Below, in pieces: positions 10,778-61,678 of a stretch of 64,000 nt of DNA. This DNA comes from Actinopolyspora alba. GTDB lineage: Bacteria; Actinomycetota; Actinomycetes; Mycobacteriales; Pseudonocardiaceae. The DNA is taken from assembly GCF_900112765.1 (NCBI RefSeq), contig NZ_FOMZ01000002.1:124001-188000 (forward strand), in the 5' to 3' direction. A program made the translations under genes and the position numbers. The notes beneath the pieces were generated by a model that was not told the origin of the DNA, did no database searches, and saw only the letters and a list, made by a program, of their open reading frames with translations. The stretch's first letter is position 1, and the number at the start of each line of letters is the position of its first letter.

Positions 10778-10832
10778 TCCGCGGTTCGAAACCCTGCCGG
10801 TGGAAACCCCGGGCCTGCCGGTGGAAACCCCG

Positions 10833-11339
10833 TCAGTGATGCTCACCTTCGGTTTCGAAATCGGTTCCGGCCGCGTCGGAGAGCATCCGCAACGCGCCGA
10901 TGAGCCCCTCGATCAGGTCACCCTCCTTGAAGGAGGCGACCATGTTCATCACGGCCAGGTTGCAAGTGCGGTCGGGTATCCGCCGATAGGCCTGTTCGCC
11001 GGTGACGATCTCCAGACAACGCTGGGAGGGCGAGACGGCGATGAGCACACCGCGCGATGCGCGGCCGCCCAGACCGGCGTGGATCTGCTCGGCACGCTCA
11101 CGGGTTCGCTCCCCCAGACCACCGAGGTAGATCGCGAATTCGAGCCCGGTCGTGCGGGTGGACAGTGTCAGCGCCTCGTCCAACCGCGCGAGCTCTCCCG
11201 GGGAGAACGGCAGTTTCGGGCGCTCCGGCTCGATACGGCGCGCGATCGACAGCCGACCACCCGCTGTAAGAGCGTGTCCCTCCTCGAGTTCGGCCGGGTT
11301 CACGTCCGCCGCTGTTCGGGTCATCTCACCAGTTGCCAC
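10833..11339 (-). CDS. DUF5130 / TPM-domain family protein
   Basis: 168 residues, actinobacterial DUF5130 type and the positional equivalent of Rv2468c (recalled). The alpha/beta TPM-like core is visible as LDEALTLSTRTTGLEFAIYLG, GRASRGVLIAVSPSQRCLEIVTG, AYRRIPDRTCNLAV and MVASFKEGDLIEGLIGAL. There is no signal peptide or TM helix. The start is GTG 11339, five bases after GGGGAGG; this start overlaps the end of the upstream small membrane gene by 14 bp, implying translational coupling. Biochemical function unknown. Confidence 0.8.
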   Translation of the reverse strand: MATGEMTRTAADVNPAELEEGHALTAGGRLSIARRIEPERPKLPFSPGELARLDEALTLSTRTTGLEFAIYLGGLGERTRERAEQIHAGLGGRASRGVLIAVSPSQRCLEIVTGEQAYRRIPDRTCNLAVMNMVASFKEGDLIEGLIGALRMLSDAAGTDFETEGEHH

Positions 11340-11574
11340 GAGCGCCTCCCCTTGCGGTACCGGTCTCCGACTCGGACTCCGCGTGTTCGGTAGATGGGCT
11401 GCTGGGGCTCACACCGGCGGGGTTCGCCACCCACAGCACCGACGGGAAGTTCCACTCCCCGTCGGGGCGGTAACGGGCACGGAACAGTCTCGGCCACAGC
11501 ACCATCAACATGACGAGGCCGTAGACAGCCGCCGGTATCACGGCCAAGACGAGTACGGTCTGCACGACAGTCAC
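11326..11574 (-). CDS. Small single-pass membrane protein
   Basis: 82 residues from GTG 11574 (VTVVQTVLVLAVIPAAVYG). One TM helix is followed by WPRLFRARYRPDGEWNFPSVLWVANPAG and a Ser/Glu-rich tail. The Y-R-P-G/D-x-x-W-N-x-P-x-x-W-x-A-N-P pattern is typical of small actinobacterial membrane proteins next to DUF5130 genes. The open frame up to 11712 upstream is not protein-like. It overlaps the DUF5130 gene and is probably co-transcribed with it. No function is known. Confidence 0.7.
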   Translation of the reverse strand: MTVVQTVLVLAVIPAAVYGLVMLMVLWPRLFRARYRPDGEWNFPSVLWVANPAGVSPSSPSTEHAESESETGTARGGARGNW

Positions 11575-11926
11575 ACCAGCACGGTATCCGATTTCCCCCA
11601 CGCGCGGTCGACTACCTGTGCCTCCTGCCTCACCCACTGGGAAAACCTCACCCCGTTCCCAGCACAACCCGACCGCGACGCCGTGAAGTAATCGTGCGGT
11701 CACTAAATACACACCACGACTGACACCATTCCTTGTCCCCCGGGCACCTTCGGTGCTGCTTTCGCCCCATTCGGAACCGCCATTCGGAGCCGAACCGGAC
11801 GGCCGCTCGGAGGGGTCGAGTTGGCGGCTTGTACCGGACAGTTTCCGATTCTAGATTTCACCTGTATGGATCTTGCGTAATTGATCGCATCCATGACAGG
11901 AGCAGTTCCGAACACGTGAGGAAACG
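11575..11926. other. Divergent intergenic region, with candidate promoter for the GVRISG gene
   Basis: 352 bp without a supported gene; base composition falls below the local average after about 11830. A plausible sigma-A-like promoter on the plus strand is TTGTAC (11829-11834), 17 bases, TAGATT (11852-11857), about 70 bases before the GVRISG start. No operator stands out. Confidence 0.35.
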
Positions 11927-12466
11927 ATGATGACCATCGAAACCGGGAACAGCAGCGCCAATTTGATCTTTCCGTGTGACGCATTTACCCCGAATGAATA
12001 CTCTGCGTGCACAAAACGGGTGATCCGAACCGGGACGGGAACCGGGACCGGAACTCGGCTCCGGACGGGGGTGCGGATCAGCGGCAGGGAAGGCGTGCGG
12101 ATCAGCGGACACGCCGGTGTGCGAATCAGCGGCAGGAGCGGCGTGCGAATCAGTGGCCGCGCGGGAGTACGGATCAGCTCGCTGGGCGGGGTGCGGATCA
12201 GCGGCCATCAGCGAGGAGTGCGAATCAGTGGCAGCCACGACTCCCGCCGGGCGGACTCCGGCGCGGGCGTGCGGATCAGCGGCAACACCGGAACGGGCGG
12301 AACGAACGAACGCCGACCTGCCACGCCGCGCTGTAACGAACGGCGAAGGGGCGGACGGCAGCCGGTCACACCGGTGGGAGACACACCGCGACCCGGGCAG
12401 AGCCGCGGCGCTCATCGGGACGGGCCGAGCATCGAGAACGACGGCCCGCCTCACCGTTCAGTGTGA
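11927..12466 (+). CDS. GVRISG octapeptide-repeat protein, function unknown
   Basis: 179 residues, start ATG 11927 (ATG 11930 also possible) after a good GAGG site. Residues 1-32 form a short leader containing two Cys and no TM helix; a Thr/Gly-rich stretch follows; then come eight copies of GVRISG/S. The first six are spaced exactly eight residues apart and the last two more widely. Variation between copies falls almost wholly at synonymous positions (GTG/GTA, CGG/CGA, AGC/AGT), indicating selection on the peptide. The C-terminus is Arg/Pro-rich. Alternating Val/Ile with Gly turns suggests a beta-rich repeat. I recognise no family. It ends 9 bp into the convergent HNH gene. Confidence 0.65.
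   Translation: MMTIETGNSSANLIFPCDAFTPNEYSACTKRVIRTGTGTGTGTRLRTGVRISGREGVRISGHAGVRISGRSGVRISGRAGVRISSLGGVRISGHQRGVRISGSHDSRRADSGAGVRISGNTGTGGTNERRPATPRCNERRRGGRQPVTPVGDTPRPGQSRGAHRDGPSIENDGPPHRSV
12068..12283 (+). repeat. 24-bp tandem repeat encoding GVRISGxx
   Basis: Val codons of the eight units begin at 12071, 12095, 12119, 12143, 12167, 12191, 12218 and 12269, so six units keep an exact 24-bp period. The DNA core GTGCGGATCAGCGG is degenerate only where codons are degenerate. Read on the minus strand the same repeat gives D-P/S-H variants, that is, non-synonymous change, which favours the plus-strand reading. Confidence 0.85.
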
Positions 12467-13108
12467 TGCGACCTCGCCGAGATAGGGCAACCACATCGGA
12501 TCGGGGTCGGTCGCGCCGGCCAACAGCCGCCAGTGCCTGCCGCGCGGCGCCTTCGGCGTCTCCGGAAGGCGCCACCCCAGCTCACGAAGCGTCCGATCGG
12601 CCTTTCGATGATTACACCGCGTACAACAGGCCACACAGTTCTCCCAGCTGTGTGCGCCACCCCTGCTCCGAGGAACCACATGATCGATGGTCTCCGCACG
12701 CACGCCGCAGTAAACACAGCGATGGTTGTCCCGCAGCATCAAGGCGGAGCGGGACAGCGGAACCCGCCCGCGATAGGGAACGTGCACGAACCGGCTCAGT
12801 CTGATGACCGAGGGAACCTCGATGCTGTGCGTCGCCGAATGCAACATCGATCCAGCGGAATCACCGTGCACCACTTCGGCCTTGCCGCAGACGATCAACA
12901 CGATCGCCCTGCGCACGGGCAGTGCGGTCAACGGTTCGAACGTCGTGTTCAGTAGTAGTACCCGCCGCTTCGGCCAAGCGCCCACGCCCTCCGATCTGTC
13001 GACGGAGGCCGACAGCCGGTGACCCCGCTTACGTCCGGCAGGACGCGCGGGGGCGCGGGGCGGCGCCGCCTTCGGAGCGCCGCACGGGATCGGTTTTCGG
13101 TCGGGCAC
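12458..13108 (-). CDS. HNH endonuclease
   Basis: 216 residues from GTG 13108, seven bases after GGAGGT; the frame is open further upstream but is not protein-like. The conserved domain runs VLLLNTTFEPLTALPVRRAI, then VPSVIRLSRFVHVPYRGRVPLSR, then the HNH zinc core: C-V-Y-C, IDHVVPRSRGG, ENCVACCTRCNHRKADR. This matches the widespread actinobacterial stand-alone HNH family and the Rv2469c position (recalled). Role unknown; DNA cleavage or repair is plausible. It is convergent with the GVRISG gene and divergent from the prolyl oligopeptidase. Confidence 0.88.
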   Translation of the reverse strand: MPDRKPIPCGAPKAAPPRAPARPAGRKRGHRLSASVDRSEGVGAWPKRRVLLLNTTFEPLTALPVRRAIVLIVCGKAEVVHGDSAGSMLHSATHSIEVPSVIRLSRFVHVPYRGRVPLSRSALMLRDNHRCVYCGVRAETIDHVVPRSRGGAHSWENCVACCTRCNHRKADRTLRELGWRLPETPKAPRGRHWRLLAGATDPDPMWLPYLGEVASH

Positions 13109-13331
13109 TCGACCACCTCCACCGTGTATGTGCATCAGTCGAACACAGAACCCGCCCGGAACGCACGTGTGATCCGCGCCGCACCGGTGACCGGATACCG
13201 AAAATTCGACGAAGAGAAGGCAACACGATCGGAAATGTACGGTTATCCGTGGCGACGAAGCCACTCCGATCATTCGGATCCAGCCGATTCGGCACACGAC
13301 CGACCGCGTCATGTGAACGGACGAACGTTTT

Positions 13332-13345
13332 CGATACCCGTATCG
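13332..13345 (+). promoter_or_regulatory. Short palindrome upstream of prolyl oligopeptidase
   Basis: CGATAC and GTATCG separated by CC, ending eight bases before the GTG start of the peptidase gene. It could be an operator or chance; no regulator is adjacent. The rest of the 245-bp divergent region shows nothing else clear. Confidence 0.25.
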
Positions 13346-13353
13346 TCCGGGGA

Positions 13354-15471
13354 GTGAACGAGGTTCAGTCATTGCCGGAGTCATATCCGAACGCGCATCG
13401 CACGGACACGGTGGAAACGCCGCACGGGTTCGAGGTGCGCGATCCCTACCGCTGGTTGGAAGACCCTTCGGACCCGGCCTGCGAGGCGTGGTCACGTGAG
13501 CAGGACCGACTCACCGACGCGTGGCTGCGCGACCTGCCCCGGCGCGAGGAGATCACCGAGCGGCTGAGCGCGCTGCTGCGCACCGGGTCGGTGTCGGCGC
13601 CGGTGTGGCGCAACGGCCGCTCGTTCTTCACCAGAAGGGAGAGCGACCAGGAGTTCCCGGTGCTGTTCGTGCGCGAACCGAGCGGAACGGTTCGGCAACT
13701 GCTCGACGTGACCGAGCTCGATCCGTCCGGACTGACGACGCTGGACCGGTGGAGTCCCAGTCCGGAAGGGGACCGACTCGCCTACCAGGTCTCGAGCGGC
13801 GGGGACGAGGAGTCGCTGCTGCACGTGCTGGACGTGACCACGGGCGAACCGCTGGAAGGTCCCATCGACCGGTGCCGCTACTCCTCGGTGGCCTGGCTTC
13901 CCGGTGGCGCCGAGTTCTACTACGTCCGCAGGATCGCCCCTGAGCTGGTCCCCGAGGACGAACGACAGTTCCACCGCCGGGTGTGGCTGCACCGGGTGGG
14001 AAGCGACCCGGACGAGGACGTGCTGGTCCACGGCGAACAGCTGCATCACACCTACTTCTACTCCGTGAGCCTGTCCCCGGACGGCAGCTGGCTGCTGGTG
14101 CACGGCAGTCCGGGAACGGCACGTCGTGATTCGCTGTGGATAGCGGATCTGCGAAACGGTGAGCGCGTTCCCGAACTGCGACGCGTGCTGGACGACGAGC
14201 AGGGCGTGCAGGCGAGTGCTCGGGTGGAACCGGACGGGTGGATGTACATCCGCACCACGCTGGACGCCCCGCGCGGCAGGCTCTGCGTCGCCGATCCGAA
14301 CCGCCCGGACCCGACCGACTGGACGGAGCTGATCCCGGAGGATCCGGAATCGGTGCTGGAGACCTCACGCTGGCTCGACAGCACTGGGTCGGATCCGCGA
14401 CTGGCCGTGTTGCGCACCGCACACGCGGTCTCCGAACTCACACTGCACGACGCGGGCACCGGCGAGCTCCGTCGTGCGGTCCCGTTGCCCGGCACCGGCC
14501 AGGTGACCACGATGAACACGGTGGACACCCGGACCACGACCGGACGTGACCGCATCTGGCTCGGCTGGACCGATTTCGCCACTCCACCGTGCGTGTACTC
14601 GTACTCGGTGGCCACGGACGAGACGGAGGCGGTGGAACACGCCCCCGGCCAGGAGGCCGTACCGGAGATAACCAGCACCCAGCTGAGTTACAGCTCGGCG
14701 GACGGCACCACGGTACGGATGTTCGTGCTCGCTCCCGCCACACCACCGCACGGGCCACTGCCCACGCTGCTGACGGGGTACGGCGGTTTCGCACTGTCCA
14801 GGGAACCCGCCTACACCCCCAACGCGCTGGCGTGGGTAGCCGCGGGCGGTGTGTGGGCGTTGCCCTCGTTGCGCGGTGGTGCCGAGGAAGGGGAACAGTG
14901 GCACCGAGCGGGCATGCGGGAGAACAAACAACGCGTCTTCGACGACTTCCACGCCGCGGCCGAGCACCTGATCGAACGGGGCTGGACCACCTCGGAGCAG
15001 CTGGCCATCAGCGGTGGCTCCAACGGCGGGCTGCTCGTGGGAGCGGCGCTGACGCAACGCCCCGAGCTGTACCGGGCAGTGGTCTGCTCGGCGCCGCTGC
15101 TGGACATGGTGCGCTACGAGAAGTTCCTGCTCGGCAGACTGTGGAGCGAGGAGTACGGCAGCGCCGAGAATCCCGAGGAACTCGAATGGTTGCTGTCCTA
15201 CTCGCCGTACCACAACATCGGCGAGGCCACGGAGTACCCGGCGGTGCTGCTGTCGGTGTTCGAGTCGGACAGCCGGGTCGATCCGATGCACGCACGCAAG
15301 ATGTGCGCGGCACTGCAGCACGCGACGAGTTCACCACCGGACAAACGCCCCGTACTGCTCCGGCGCGAGACGGAGGTGGGGCATTCGGCACGTTCGGTCT
15401 CCCGTAGTGTGGGCATGGCGACCGACCATTTCGCGTTTCTCGCGGAAGCCACCGGACTCATCCGGAAGTAG
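13354..15471 (+). CDS. Prolyl oligopeptidase (S9A serine peptidase)
   Basis: 705 residues, the usual size of prolyl oligopeptidase, which cleaves short peptides after proline. The N-terminus PYRWLEDPSDPACEAWSREQ is the family hallmark. A seven-bladed propeller covers about residues 75-430, and the alpha/beta hydrolase domain follows. The catalytic triad is readable: Ser556 in GGSNGG, Asp643 in DSRVDPMHA, His677 in EVGHSARS. No signal peptide is seen, so it is likely cytosolic. The start is GTG 13354; TTG 13372 after GAGG is an alternative. It has no equivalent in the mycobacterial block as I recall it, so it is an insertion. Confidence 0.93.
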   Translation: MNEVQSLPESYPNAHRTDTVETPHGFEVRDPYRWLEDPSDPACEAWSREQDRLTDAWLRDLPRREEITERLSALLRTGSVSAPVWRNGRSFFTRRESDQEFPVLFVREPSGTVRQLLDVTELDPSGLTTLDRWSPSPEGDRLAYQVSSGGDEESLLHVLDVTTGEPLEGPIDRCRYSSVAWLPGGAEFYYVRRIAPELVPEDERQFHRRVWLHRVGSDPDEDVLVHGEQLHHTYFYSVSLSPDGSWLLVHGSPGTARRDSLWIADLRNGERVPELRRVLDDEQGVQASARVEPDGWMYIRTTLDAPRGRLCVADPNRPDPTDWTELIPEDPESVLETSRWLDSTGSDPRLAVLRTAHAVSELTLHDAGTGELRRAVPLPGTGQVTTMNTVDTRTTTGRDRIWLGWTDFATPPCVYSYSVATDETEAVEHAPGQEAVPEITSTQLSYSSADGTTVRMFVLAPATPPHGPLPTLLTGYGGFALSREPAYTPNALAWVAAGGVWALPSLRGGAEEGEQWHRAGMRENKQRVFDDFHAAAEHLIERGWTTSEQLAISGGSNGGLLVGAALTQRPELYRAVVCSAPLLDMVRYEKFLLGRLWSEEYGSAENPEELEWLLSYSPYHNIGEATEYPAVLLSVFESDSRVDPMHARKMCAALQHATSSPPDKRPVLLRRETEVGHSARSVSRSVGMATDHFAFLAEATGLIRK

Positions 15472-55574: not shown

Positions 55575-56491
55575 GACAACTCCCTCAATCCCGCCTCGTG
55601 CCTCCACCACGACCGCGGCGGCGATGTCCGTCCCGTTCGTGGGCCGATGGATCGGCTGCCGTCGTGGCACGCGGATGAGGCGGGCCACCGTGGCTGCCCG
55701 TCGTTGAAGACCGTACGCCACGGCTCACAGCGACTTGCGACTACCTGACACCGACAGTGGTCTCGGCCACGTCGGGCGGGAACAACGGCGCTTCGAACCG
55801 CGCGGTTCACATGAGGAACGGGACGCCCACCAGGACGGAACACCGCGAGCCTCCGGAGGGCGACTCCGCGGAGCAGCCGCCCCGCCGGCGACCACCCAGT
55901 GAGCTACTCCCCAGTGAGCTACTACTCCGTGAGCGACCACCCGATGTGCCGCGCCGCTGCGAGCGAGCGGCGAATCGGGGCGGTCTCCCCCGCTACCGGG
56001 CGTCCCCGACTCGGCACTCCTCGGCCGCGGACTCGCGGGAACGCGGCTCGGCCTTCCGGTCGGCGACGTTCGCCGTGATCATCGGCTCGTCACCCCCGGT
56101 GGCGACTCGGAGGCCGGCGAAGGATTCCGTCCTCCGGCACACCCCGCCGAACCCGATGGTCGTTCCCGCTCAACCTTCCGAGTCGATGGTGCGGTTCACA
56201 CCACTCTTCCACGGTCCCCGCTCGCCGGAGGGAGCGGATTCGGCGGCCGGAATCCACCGGCCTACCACTTCCGCACGTTTCACGAACATTCTTCCGAAAT
56301 GTTTCGTGTCCACACCGATTTCACGCGCGAGATCCGCGCATCGCCCCACAAAAATGAATTGCTTTCATTCAATGATACGTCTCGCTCGTTCGAGTGAGAA
56401 CTCGGACGTGCGCATCAAGCATGCGCCGGAAAATCCGTCACTCCGCTTAGGATCACCAGCAGCACAGTGTCGAGCGGAAGTGCGGTGGACC
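55575..56491. other. Long intergenic region upstream of the DivIVA-like operon
   Basis: 917 bp. The reading frame of the DivIVA-like gene is open back to 55757, but the sequence is not protein-like. A short tandem repeat of CCAGTGAGCTACTCC type occurs near 55897-55937. An AT-richer stretch holds inverted repeats CGAAA TG TTTCG (56295-56306) and AATGAA TTGCT TTCATT (56353-56369), and probably contains the promoter. Confidence 0.45.
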
Positions 56492-61315: not shown

Positions 61316-61678
61316 AGCCCTGACGGCTCGGGCCACGTAGCTACTCACTTGGCGGAACCTCTGGCACGGCGCTCGTTGCGGGGAGGCCCGACCTCGGGTG
61401 GCGACCTACACAACGTCGGGCCTTCCTCGCGAGAGCCGCACCGGAGACCCCGCGGCGGTGCCGACTGCCGGGATGGTCGGAGTGCGACCTGCGGGAGTGG
61501 TGGGAGTGCGGCTACTCGTCGGTGCTGGCGGCCCGGCGATTTCGCGAGAAATTGACGCCCAACCGTGCCGTCCGGCCCTACCTTCCCGACATTTCGCGAG
61601 AAATCGACGCCGCACCGAAGAACCCCACCGAGCAACAGCTTGAACGGAACTCGGCCCTACCGGCTCCGGGTGAGCGCG
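61316..61678. other. Repeat-rich intergenic region
   Basis: 363 bp between convergent genes, without a gene. It holds one copy (61351-61404) of the repeat also found at 7002-7053, an inverted repeat AGGCCCGAC / GTCGGGCCT (61384-61392 and 61415-61423) likely acting as terminator, and two near-identical 21-bp direct repeats further on. Confidence 0.5.
61539..61611 (+). repeat. Two direct repeats with a 52-bp period
   Basis: ATTTCGCGAGAAAT followed by T/C and GACGCC occurs at 61539-61559 and 61591-61611, 20 of 21 bases identical. Each contains a near-palindrome centred on TCGCGA. Confidence 0.7.

What the first reader, a model, noticed from the sequence alone, without database searches (positions are those of the whole stretch)
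11927..12466. Protein built of GVRISG octapeptide repeats under strong peptide-level selection
Eight copies of GVRIS(G/S), six in perfect 24-bp register, differ between copies almost only at synonymous sites. The gene has a good ribosome binding site and a plausible promoter, is basic, has no TM helix, and matches no family I know. It could be a small beta-solenoid, a nucleic-acid or surface-binding repeat, or a precursor peptide with repeated cores. It is inserted in an otherwise conserved gene block.
Basis: seen in the sequence. Interest (0 to 1): 0.75.

Follow-up and report, generated by a model that had tools for sequence, protein, structure and literature searches.

The report
Lineage-coded pentapeptide array proteins in actinobacteria
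A small uncharacterised bacterial protein made of many copies of one five-letter peptide turns out to belong to an old, vertically inherited family in which each lineage keeps its own version of the peptide, strongly preserved in nearly every copy, for a function that is still unknown.

Summary
ORF 11927-12466 (+) holds eight GVRIS units, six in 24-bp register, whose codons differ silently. It belongs to an unnamed family. In the same slot, beside a convergent HNH gene, 37 of 44 examined genera of the window's family carry such an ORF, as do 7 of 14 genomes read from a second family. The conserved unit is five residues, not eight: [GSA]-[VTIAS]-Arg-[VI]-[STNHEG], 2-51 copies, spacing 6-9 or longer. 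Each protein is nearly uniform, but lineages differ: GVRIS, GTRVT, SVRIT, GTRIT, GVRVT, GIRVN, GVRIH, GVRIE, GTRVG and others. In 16 orthologue pairs unit codons show 266 silent to 12 replacement differences; the rest of the protein 202 to 360. An element at the expected transcription start, TTTCACCTGTACGGGTCTTGC, occurs exactly once, at this locus, in 10 of 10 carriers searched and in 0 of 3 non-carriers. Of 107 proteins, 22 end in tmRNA-tag-like -LAA. Best reading: a cytoplasmic, mostly disordered protein that displays many copies of one short binding motif to a co-evolving partner. Mechanism inferred; partner unknown.

The parts
11927..12466 (+). Repeat-array ORF, 179 aa; the conserved start is probably the second ATG at 11930
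   Evidence: relative L009 lacks the first ATG
12068..12280 (+). Array of eight GVRIS units (15-bp unit; 24-bp register for the first six)
11856..11876 (+). Private conserved element TTTCACCTGTATGGATCTTGC at the expected transcription start; one copy in the genome within 3 mismatches
11819..11857 (+). Inferred promoter: box AGTTGGCGGCTTGT (11819-11832), -35-like TTGTAC (11829-11834), 17 bp, -10-like TAGATT (11852-11857)
   Evidence: footprint across genera. Not found by the strict consensus scan. The box on its own is not specific: the reversed control matched as often or more.
11916..11924 (+). Ribosome-binding site region GTGAGGAAA (GGAGG in many relatives)
12458..13495 (-). Convergent HNH-domain gene whose 3' end overlaps the ORF by 9 bp; used as the marker of the slot in relatives
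11329..11712 (-). Divergent ctaJ (aa3 oxidase subunit), other side of the slot; the profile matches only the last 81 of 128 residues, so the true start is probably nearer 11572
   Evidence: NCBIfam NF050118

Best explanation
The gene encodes a cytoplasmic, largely disordered display protein. A short N-terminal stretch is followed by 2 to 51 copies of one 5-residue binding motif of the form small - beta-branched or small - Arg - Val/Ile - polar or Gly (GVRIS in this window), joined by short, mostly polar linkers. Each copy is proposed to bind, in extended form, a pocket or sheet edge of one conserved partner. The array would then cluster or titrate that partner in a dose set by copy number. The motif changes between lineages because the partner's specificity drifts, and every copy in a genome must follow. 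The gene has its own promoter with an operator-like element at the expected transcription start. In several lineages the protein carries a tmRNA-tag-like C-terminus that would make it short-lived. SHOWN: coding, selection on the 5-mer, free spacing, lineage-specific near-uniformity, inheritance with the locus, a private upstream element, and -LAA tails in 22 of 107 proteins. INFERRED: disorder, cytoplasmic location, existence of a partner, titration or clustering, proteolytic turnover.
For: Unit codons vary silently: third positions differ by 0.24-0.53 (means by unit type), first plus second by 0.00-0.04 (73 arrays with at least 4 units). 1234 exact units stand against 35 one-substitution units in 75 ORFs. 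Orthologue pairs give 266 silent and 12 replacement changes in units, 202 and 360 elsewhere (16 pairs, not independent). Arrays predate close speciations: silent differences within an array (0.37-0.60) exceed those between orthologous units (0.20-0.23; the 3 of 6 pairs tried that had equal copy number). Arg is common to all unit types, while spacing (6-9, longer in L190, L193, L195), copy number and net charge vary. Members with 2-3 copies exist (2 in L069; 3 in L101, L155, L173, L176, L185). AF2 of the window protein shows no structure: pLDDT 44, pTM 0.18. Unit labels cluster on the HNH tree: 20 changes against 69.7 in shuffles (its bootstrap had not settled). The upstream element is present once in 10 of 10 carriers and 0 of 3 non-carriers. 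C-termini such as SEFALAA and NDFALAA resemble these genera's tmRNA tags REFALAA and RAFALAA.
Against: No partner was identified, and no expression or binding data were available. The AF2 alignments were shallow (9-10 rows), so low confidence is not proof of disorder. The GTRVT model has a short strand at most units (pLDDT 58, pTM 0.50), which self-stacking would also explain. Uniform copies are expected of a self-assembling repeat too. The -LAA tail is absent from 85 of 107 proteins, the window's included (one of the 85, L223, is cut at its 3' end). The gene looks dispensable at the genus level: seven of 44 examined genera showed none.
Confidence: 0.42

Rival explanations
1. Self-assembling repeat: units are beta-strands that stack on one another as a beta-solenoid, cross-beta fibre or condensate scaffold. 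Uniformity within a genome reflects like-with-like stacking, and the Arg residues form ladders.
For: Alternating beta-branched pattern; AF2 of a period-6 member places a short strand at most units. Weak sub-threshold profile hits of a period-6 member to left-handed beta-helix enzymes and of two period-8 members to VgrG spikes.
Against: Spacing is not fixed within or between proteins (6/9 in L078, 6/8 in L083, longer Pro-containing linkers in L190/L193/L195), and 2-3-unit members exist. The window protein's model has no secondary structure. The hits are far below curated cut-offs, and the best NCBIfam hit of the period-6 member is a collagen-like adhesin, so they look compositional.
Confidence: 0.22
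2. Multi-copy peptide precursor: the array is cut (for example by ClpP after recognition of the -LAA tail) into many identical short peptides that signal inside or outside the cell. The unit changes between lineages with its receptor, as in yeast alpha-factor precursors (recalled comparison).
For: Many identical copies with variable spacers, lineage-specific unit, own regulated-looking promoter, tmRNA-like tail in 22 of 107.
Against: No evident hydrophobic export signal in the leaders listed (read by eye; no predictor run); no common residue flanks the units; several members of the second family have almost no leader.
Confidence: 0.18
3. Ribosomally made, enzyme-modified peptide (multi-core RiPP) in which the common Arg is modified.
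For: Short N-terminal region followed by repeated cores; one residue common to all units.
Against: The neighbours identified are housekeeping-type genes (DUF5130, CtaJ, HNH, prolyl oligopeptidase, MscS, globin), with no maturase among them; the loci were not otherwise annotated gene by gene. The N-terminal region is not conserved and is nearly absent in L206, L212, L214.
Confidence: 0.06
4. Nucleic-acid or polyanion binder acting through the Arg repeats.
For: 10 of 13 members counted are basic, and Arg is common to all units.
Against: 3 of 13 are acidic overall (L079 24 K+R against 33 D+E; L094 21 against 26; L087 26 against 28).
Confidence: 0.06

Closest known systems
Left-handed beta-helix hexapeptide repeat proteins (LpxD, NeuD type)
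   Same: Period-6 members (GTRVTx) have an aliphatic and a small residue four apart; weak profile similarity
   Different: Scores far below cut-offs; other members have periods 7, 8, 9 or irregular; a fixed Arg is not part of that motif (recalled)
VgrG / gp5-type octapeptide spike beta-helix
   Same: Period-8 members (SVRITARD) weakly resemble VgrG repeats
   Different: No secretion or phage genes among the identified neighbours; the period is not conserved; PDB hits are weak for low-complexity queries (a spike protein E 3.6e-6; VgrG E 3.6e-4)
Multi-copy peptide precursors (yeast alpha-factor, neuropeptide precursors; recalled)
   Same: Many identical copies, variable spacers, unit changes between lineages
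   Different: No evident secretion signal or constant processing site here
Multivalent short-linear-motif proteins (FG-repeat and scaffold type; recalled)
   Same: Short motif repeated in varied numbers with variable polar linkers
   Different: Near-uniformity of the whole motif within a genome together with replacement between lineages is unusual; bacterial; partner unknown
Phage Frankie gp59 SAHVxAxG octapeptide protein
   Same: Period-8 small/beta repeats with weak tblastn similarity
   Different: Different motif without a fixed Arg, further non-repeat C-terminal part, different context

Membership tests
Multi-core RiPP precursor | Maturation enzyme encoded nearby | tested here: not met
   Pfam on 7 neighbours in the window gave none; ctaJ, DUF5130 and HNH flank the slot in 25 of 25 longer loci. 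A distant enzyme is not excluded.
Multi-core RiPP precursor | Conserved leader peptide | tested here: not met
   N-termini differ between genera and are almost absent in L206, L212, L214
Left-handed beta-helix hexapeptide proteins | Regular hexapeptide period and profile score over the cut-off | tested here: not met
   Spacings 6-9 or more; NCBIfam score 22.8 against cut-off 207 for the LpxD model
VgrG/gp5 spike | Family-level profile match and phage/T6SS context | tested here: not met
   26.2 and 24.8 bits against cut-off 100; no such genes among the neighbours identified
Pentapeptide repeat proteins (Pfam) | Pfam match | tested here: not met
   No Pfam family at E<=1 for the window protein; other members were not run against Pfam
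Multivalent short-linear-motif protein (works like) | Motif conserved while linkers are free in length and sequence | tested here: met
Multivalent short-linear-motif protein (works like) | Motif binds a defined partner | not testable with these tools
   No partner identified
Multi-copy peptide precursor (works like) | Secretion signal or constant processing sites | tested here: inconclusive
   No evident signal in leaders read by eye and no constant flank; cytoplasmic proteolysis not testable

The most novel reading that the evidence does not exclude
A bacterial counterpart of a pheromone polyprotein: one vertically inherited gene encodes up to tens of copies of a lineage-specific pentapeptide, with a private promoter and, in many lineages, a ClpXP-type tail that delivers the chain for cutting. 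The pentapeptide 'word' is rewritten in concert in nearly every copy as its receptor changes, giving each lineage its own peptide code.
Probability: 0.15. Interest if true: 0.93.

Novelty: categorically new. Interest (0 to 1): 0.76.

Why it matters
A family found across most examined genera of one bacterial family, and in part of a second, has no named model in the libraries searched here, probably because its only conserved part is five residues long and differs between lineages. It is a natural experiment in co-evolution: within a genome nearly every copy of the motif is held identical despite free silent change, while between lineages the copies differ. Finding the partner would show how a repeated short motif and its reader change together, and why these actinobacteria keep the gene. 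The uniform units make the partner search direct.

Tried and rejected
Antisense reading: the wobble positions of GVRIS coincide with those of an antisense (L)(I/M)RTP frame, so silent variation alone does not fix the strand. The sense strand is favoured by Ser AGY/TCN switching, by CGC/CGG use (which would swap Met and Ile antisense) and by the ribosome-binding site and upstream element.

5' leader RNA structure: no consensus fold over 64 distinct leaders (alifold -0.7) and mean z 0.04 against mononucleotide shuffles for 16 of the 64. Rfam gave only a chance-level match (mir-1292, E 0.58).

Regulon: the upstream element is unique in the own genome and in the 10 carriers, so it does not mark a multi-gene regulon. 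Control: the reversed pattern matched 3 times in the 13 genomes (once in G366, twice in G015), so single chance matches do occur. The second box (one mismatch) was not informative: in G184 it matched away from the locus, in G366 once more elsewhere, and the reversed control matched as often or more.

Second copy or partner with the same 5-mer: the own genome has 16 matches to a GVRIS-like DNA word, 6 of them in the array. Three of the other ten encode Ser; in two of these the pentamer is internal to a long ordinary-looking frame, in one the frame looks non-coding (judged by eye). The word used covers only part of the Ile and Ser codons.

Plasmid and phage collections: 21 plasmid records, and 5 and 8 phage records in two searches, matched. 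By organism and identity (all under 60%) I took them for low-complexity repeats of other motifs; only one (Frankie gp59) was read. Class-wide search of 296 genomes: 8 matches, of which only the in-family one (G028) is a true member on inspection. That search used one GTRVT protein and did not detect even the window's own GVRIS member, so it says little about other units.

Census by profile: alignment A1 matched 112 of 390 family genomes, but it missed GTRVT carriers such as G015, so I did not use it as a census. An early note called hits in L055-L061 spurious. This was wrong for those followed up: one search shows SVRIT, GVRIE and GTRIT members in G063, G327, G385 and G200.

Literature: text searches for GVRIS, GTRVT and SVRIT, Rv2468c/Rv2469c and three word combinations listed no paper that, from its listing, concerns these repeats. 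Only search listings were read; no paper was opened. The library lacks most subscription journals.

Full report
What is in the window. ORF 11927-12466 (+) encodes 179 aa with eight GVRIS units at spacings of 8,8,8,8,8,9,17 residues. It lies between a divergent ctaJ gene (NCBIfam NF050118) and a convergent HNH gene whose 3' end it overlaps by 9 bp. Around it are genes for a response-regulator-like protein, DUF5130, prolyl oligopeptidase, MscS and a globin (Pfam), and further off an aminopeptidase that I take from memory for pepN. A similar order in mycobacteria (pepN-Rv2468c-Rv2469c-glbO) is recalled; in three f8 loci a DUF5130 match lies 0.3-1.3 kb from HNH, and no repeat ORF was found in those loci. 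The window's genus is Actinopolyspora by its closest named relative. Family names below are my inference; the tool gives only numbers (f1, f4, f8), f1 being the window's own, probably Pseudonocardiaceae.

It is an old locus. All 10 genomes of the genus, the own one included, have a match. Named relatives are in Actinopolyspora righensis, Saccharopolyspora and Crossiella. Using the HNH protein as an anchor I read the slot beside it. Of 44 genera of f1 examined (of 46), 37 hold a repeat ORF; g5, g14, g19, g30, g41, g44 and g45 showed none in the stretch read, and g21 and g29 were not looked at. This is my tally. In f4/g49, 14 of the 17 genomes were read: 7 hold one (L155, L204, L206, L207, L208, L212, L214), one (L205) begins an array and is then masked, and 6 showed none. 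No such ORF was seen in 15 loci of f8 or in 17 loci from ten further families of the order; in the latter the HNH match is near 55% identity and the slot was not confirmed. In the 25 longer f1 loci mapped (one genome twice), ctaJ, DUF5130 and HNH are present in all. On an HNH tree of 119 rows the unit labels need 20 changes, against 69.7 in shuffles (bootstrap not settled), so the array is inherited with the locus; the label 'none' needs 3 changes.

The unit is five residues and is a lineage word. Units seen: GVRIS, GTRVT, SVRIT, GTRIT, GVRVT, GIRVT, GIRVN, GVRVN, GVRIN, GVRIH, GVRIE, and in f4 GTRVG, GVRVG, AVRVG, GARIG, GSRIG. The Arg is common to all these types; single substituted units include a few at Arg (4 of 35). 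Spacing is 6, 7, 8 or 9 in most arrays and mixed within single proteins (6 and 9 in L078, 6 and 8 in L083). The g2 members have longer linkers with prolines. Copy number is 2 to 51 over 107 distinct proteins with 1614 units (L191 and L223 are cut fragments). A few arrays are mixed (GIRVN with one GVRVN in L077; GTRVT with one GTRIT in L103; several variants in L049), as expected of gradual replacement.

Selection. In 75 ORFs, 1234 exact units stand against 35 with one substitution. Within arrays, third positions differ by 0.24-0.53 (means by unit type) and first plus second positions by 0.00-0.04; the latter includes silent Ser and Arg codon-block switches. In 16 orthologue pairs, which share some sequences and so are not independent, units show 266 silent and 12 replacement differences in 1174 codons; the remainder shows 202 and 360 in 1722. 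Some of the 12 may be misaligned units. In the three of six pairs with equal copy number, orthologous units differ less at silent sites (0.20-0.23) than units of one array do (0.37-0.60). Those arrays are therefore older than the species, and recent duplication does not explain their uniformity.

A private control element. Of 76 loci (one genome twice), 70 have TTCACC upstream, and in 69 of them the distance from it to the start codon is 69-73 nt. The conserved block reads TTTTCACCTGTACGGGTCTTGC and overlaps or follows a -10-like hexamer (mostly TAG.TT) about 17 bp from a -35-like CTTGT. Exceptions: L096 and L101 have diverged; L124, L126 and L130 read TTTTTCACACGTACGG; L115 is cut. It occurs once in the own genome within 3 mismatches. 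In 13 others it occurs once in each of 10 carriers, at this locus, and not at all in 3 non-carriers; the reversed control gave 3 matches in these 13 genomes. The transcribed part shows no conserved fold. It is most simply an operator or start-site element for this gene alone.

Tail. 22 of 107 proteins end in -LAA, in 11 genera by my count, and 15 more in -AA; 22 end exactly at a unit. The expected frequency of LAA from the composition of one neighbouring protein is about 0.0013, though related proteins are not independent. Tails such as SEFALAA, QDFALAA and NDFALAA resemble the tmRNA tags of nine of these genomes (REFALAA, RAFALAA, TAYALAA and AEFALAA endings). That ClpXP recognises such tails is recalled knowledge. 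The window protein itself ends in PPHRSV.

Structure. AlphaFold2 gave no structure for the window protein (pLDDT 44, pTM 0.18, 10 rows). It gave a low-confidence model with a short strand at most units for a period-6 member (pLDDT 58, pTM 0.50, 9 rows). Weak profile hits follow the period: for GTRVT a collagen-like adhesin (best, E 3.1e-5) and hexapeptide beta-helix enzymes, for SVRIT and GVRIS VgrG spikes, all far below cut-offs; PDB sequence hits are similar and include ribosomal and other chains. PHROGs gave nothing for the window protein but hits to families of unknown function for three others, the best E 2.6e-15 for L085. I read these as compositional similarity; the PHROGs families were not examined further.

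Interpretation. What is held constant is a 5-residue motif with a central Arg, mostly between beta-branched residues. What is free is spacing, copy number, charge, termini and length. That is the signature of a short binding motif displayed many times, and 2-3-copy members make a self-sufficient solenoid unlikely. Near-uniformity within a genome plus replacement between lineages points to a co-evolving reader. Self-assembly and a peptide-precursor role remain live rivals. No partner is known, and all function is inferred.

Noticed in passing
L204, 0.4-1.1 kb from the HNH 3' end; L208, about 0.9 kb and 0.3 kb from it: Tandem paralogues: three consecutive AVRVG-array ORFs in L204, each preceded by AGGAGCTCCC, and two GSRIG arrays in different frames in L208.
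   Followed up: partly
L042, L032, L051 and other Saccharopolyspora-group loci, upstream of the array promoter: CRP-like palindrome (TGTGACCCAAATCAC and variants such as GTGTTATACATCAC) between ctaJ and the array gene, seen by eye.
   Followed up: no
window 12027-12054: A 12-bp repeat (GAACCGGGACCG, 2.3 copies) in the leader gives a Gly-Thr stretch that differs between close relatives.
   Followed up: no
window 10793-10832: Perfect 21-bp tandem repeat (1.9 copies) between the response-regulator-like ORF and DUF5130.
   Followed up: no
L237:1915-2820: Mycobacterium phage Frankie gp59 has an SAHVxAxG octapeptide array followed by a non-repeat part.
   Followed up: partly
Bordetella phages BPP-1, BMP-1, BIP-1, bbp36 / VR2 region: tblastn similarity of the SVRIT array to the bbp36/VR2 region, E down to 2e-20; probably compositional.
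   Followed up: no
window 55894-55942 and 61458-61509: Other short tandem repeats (15 bp x 3.3; 24 bp x 2.2) in the window.
   Followed up: no
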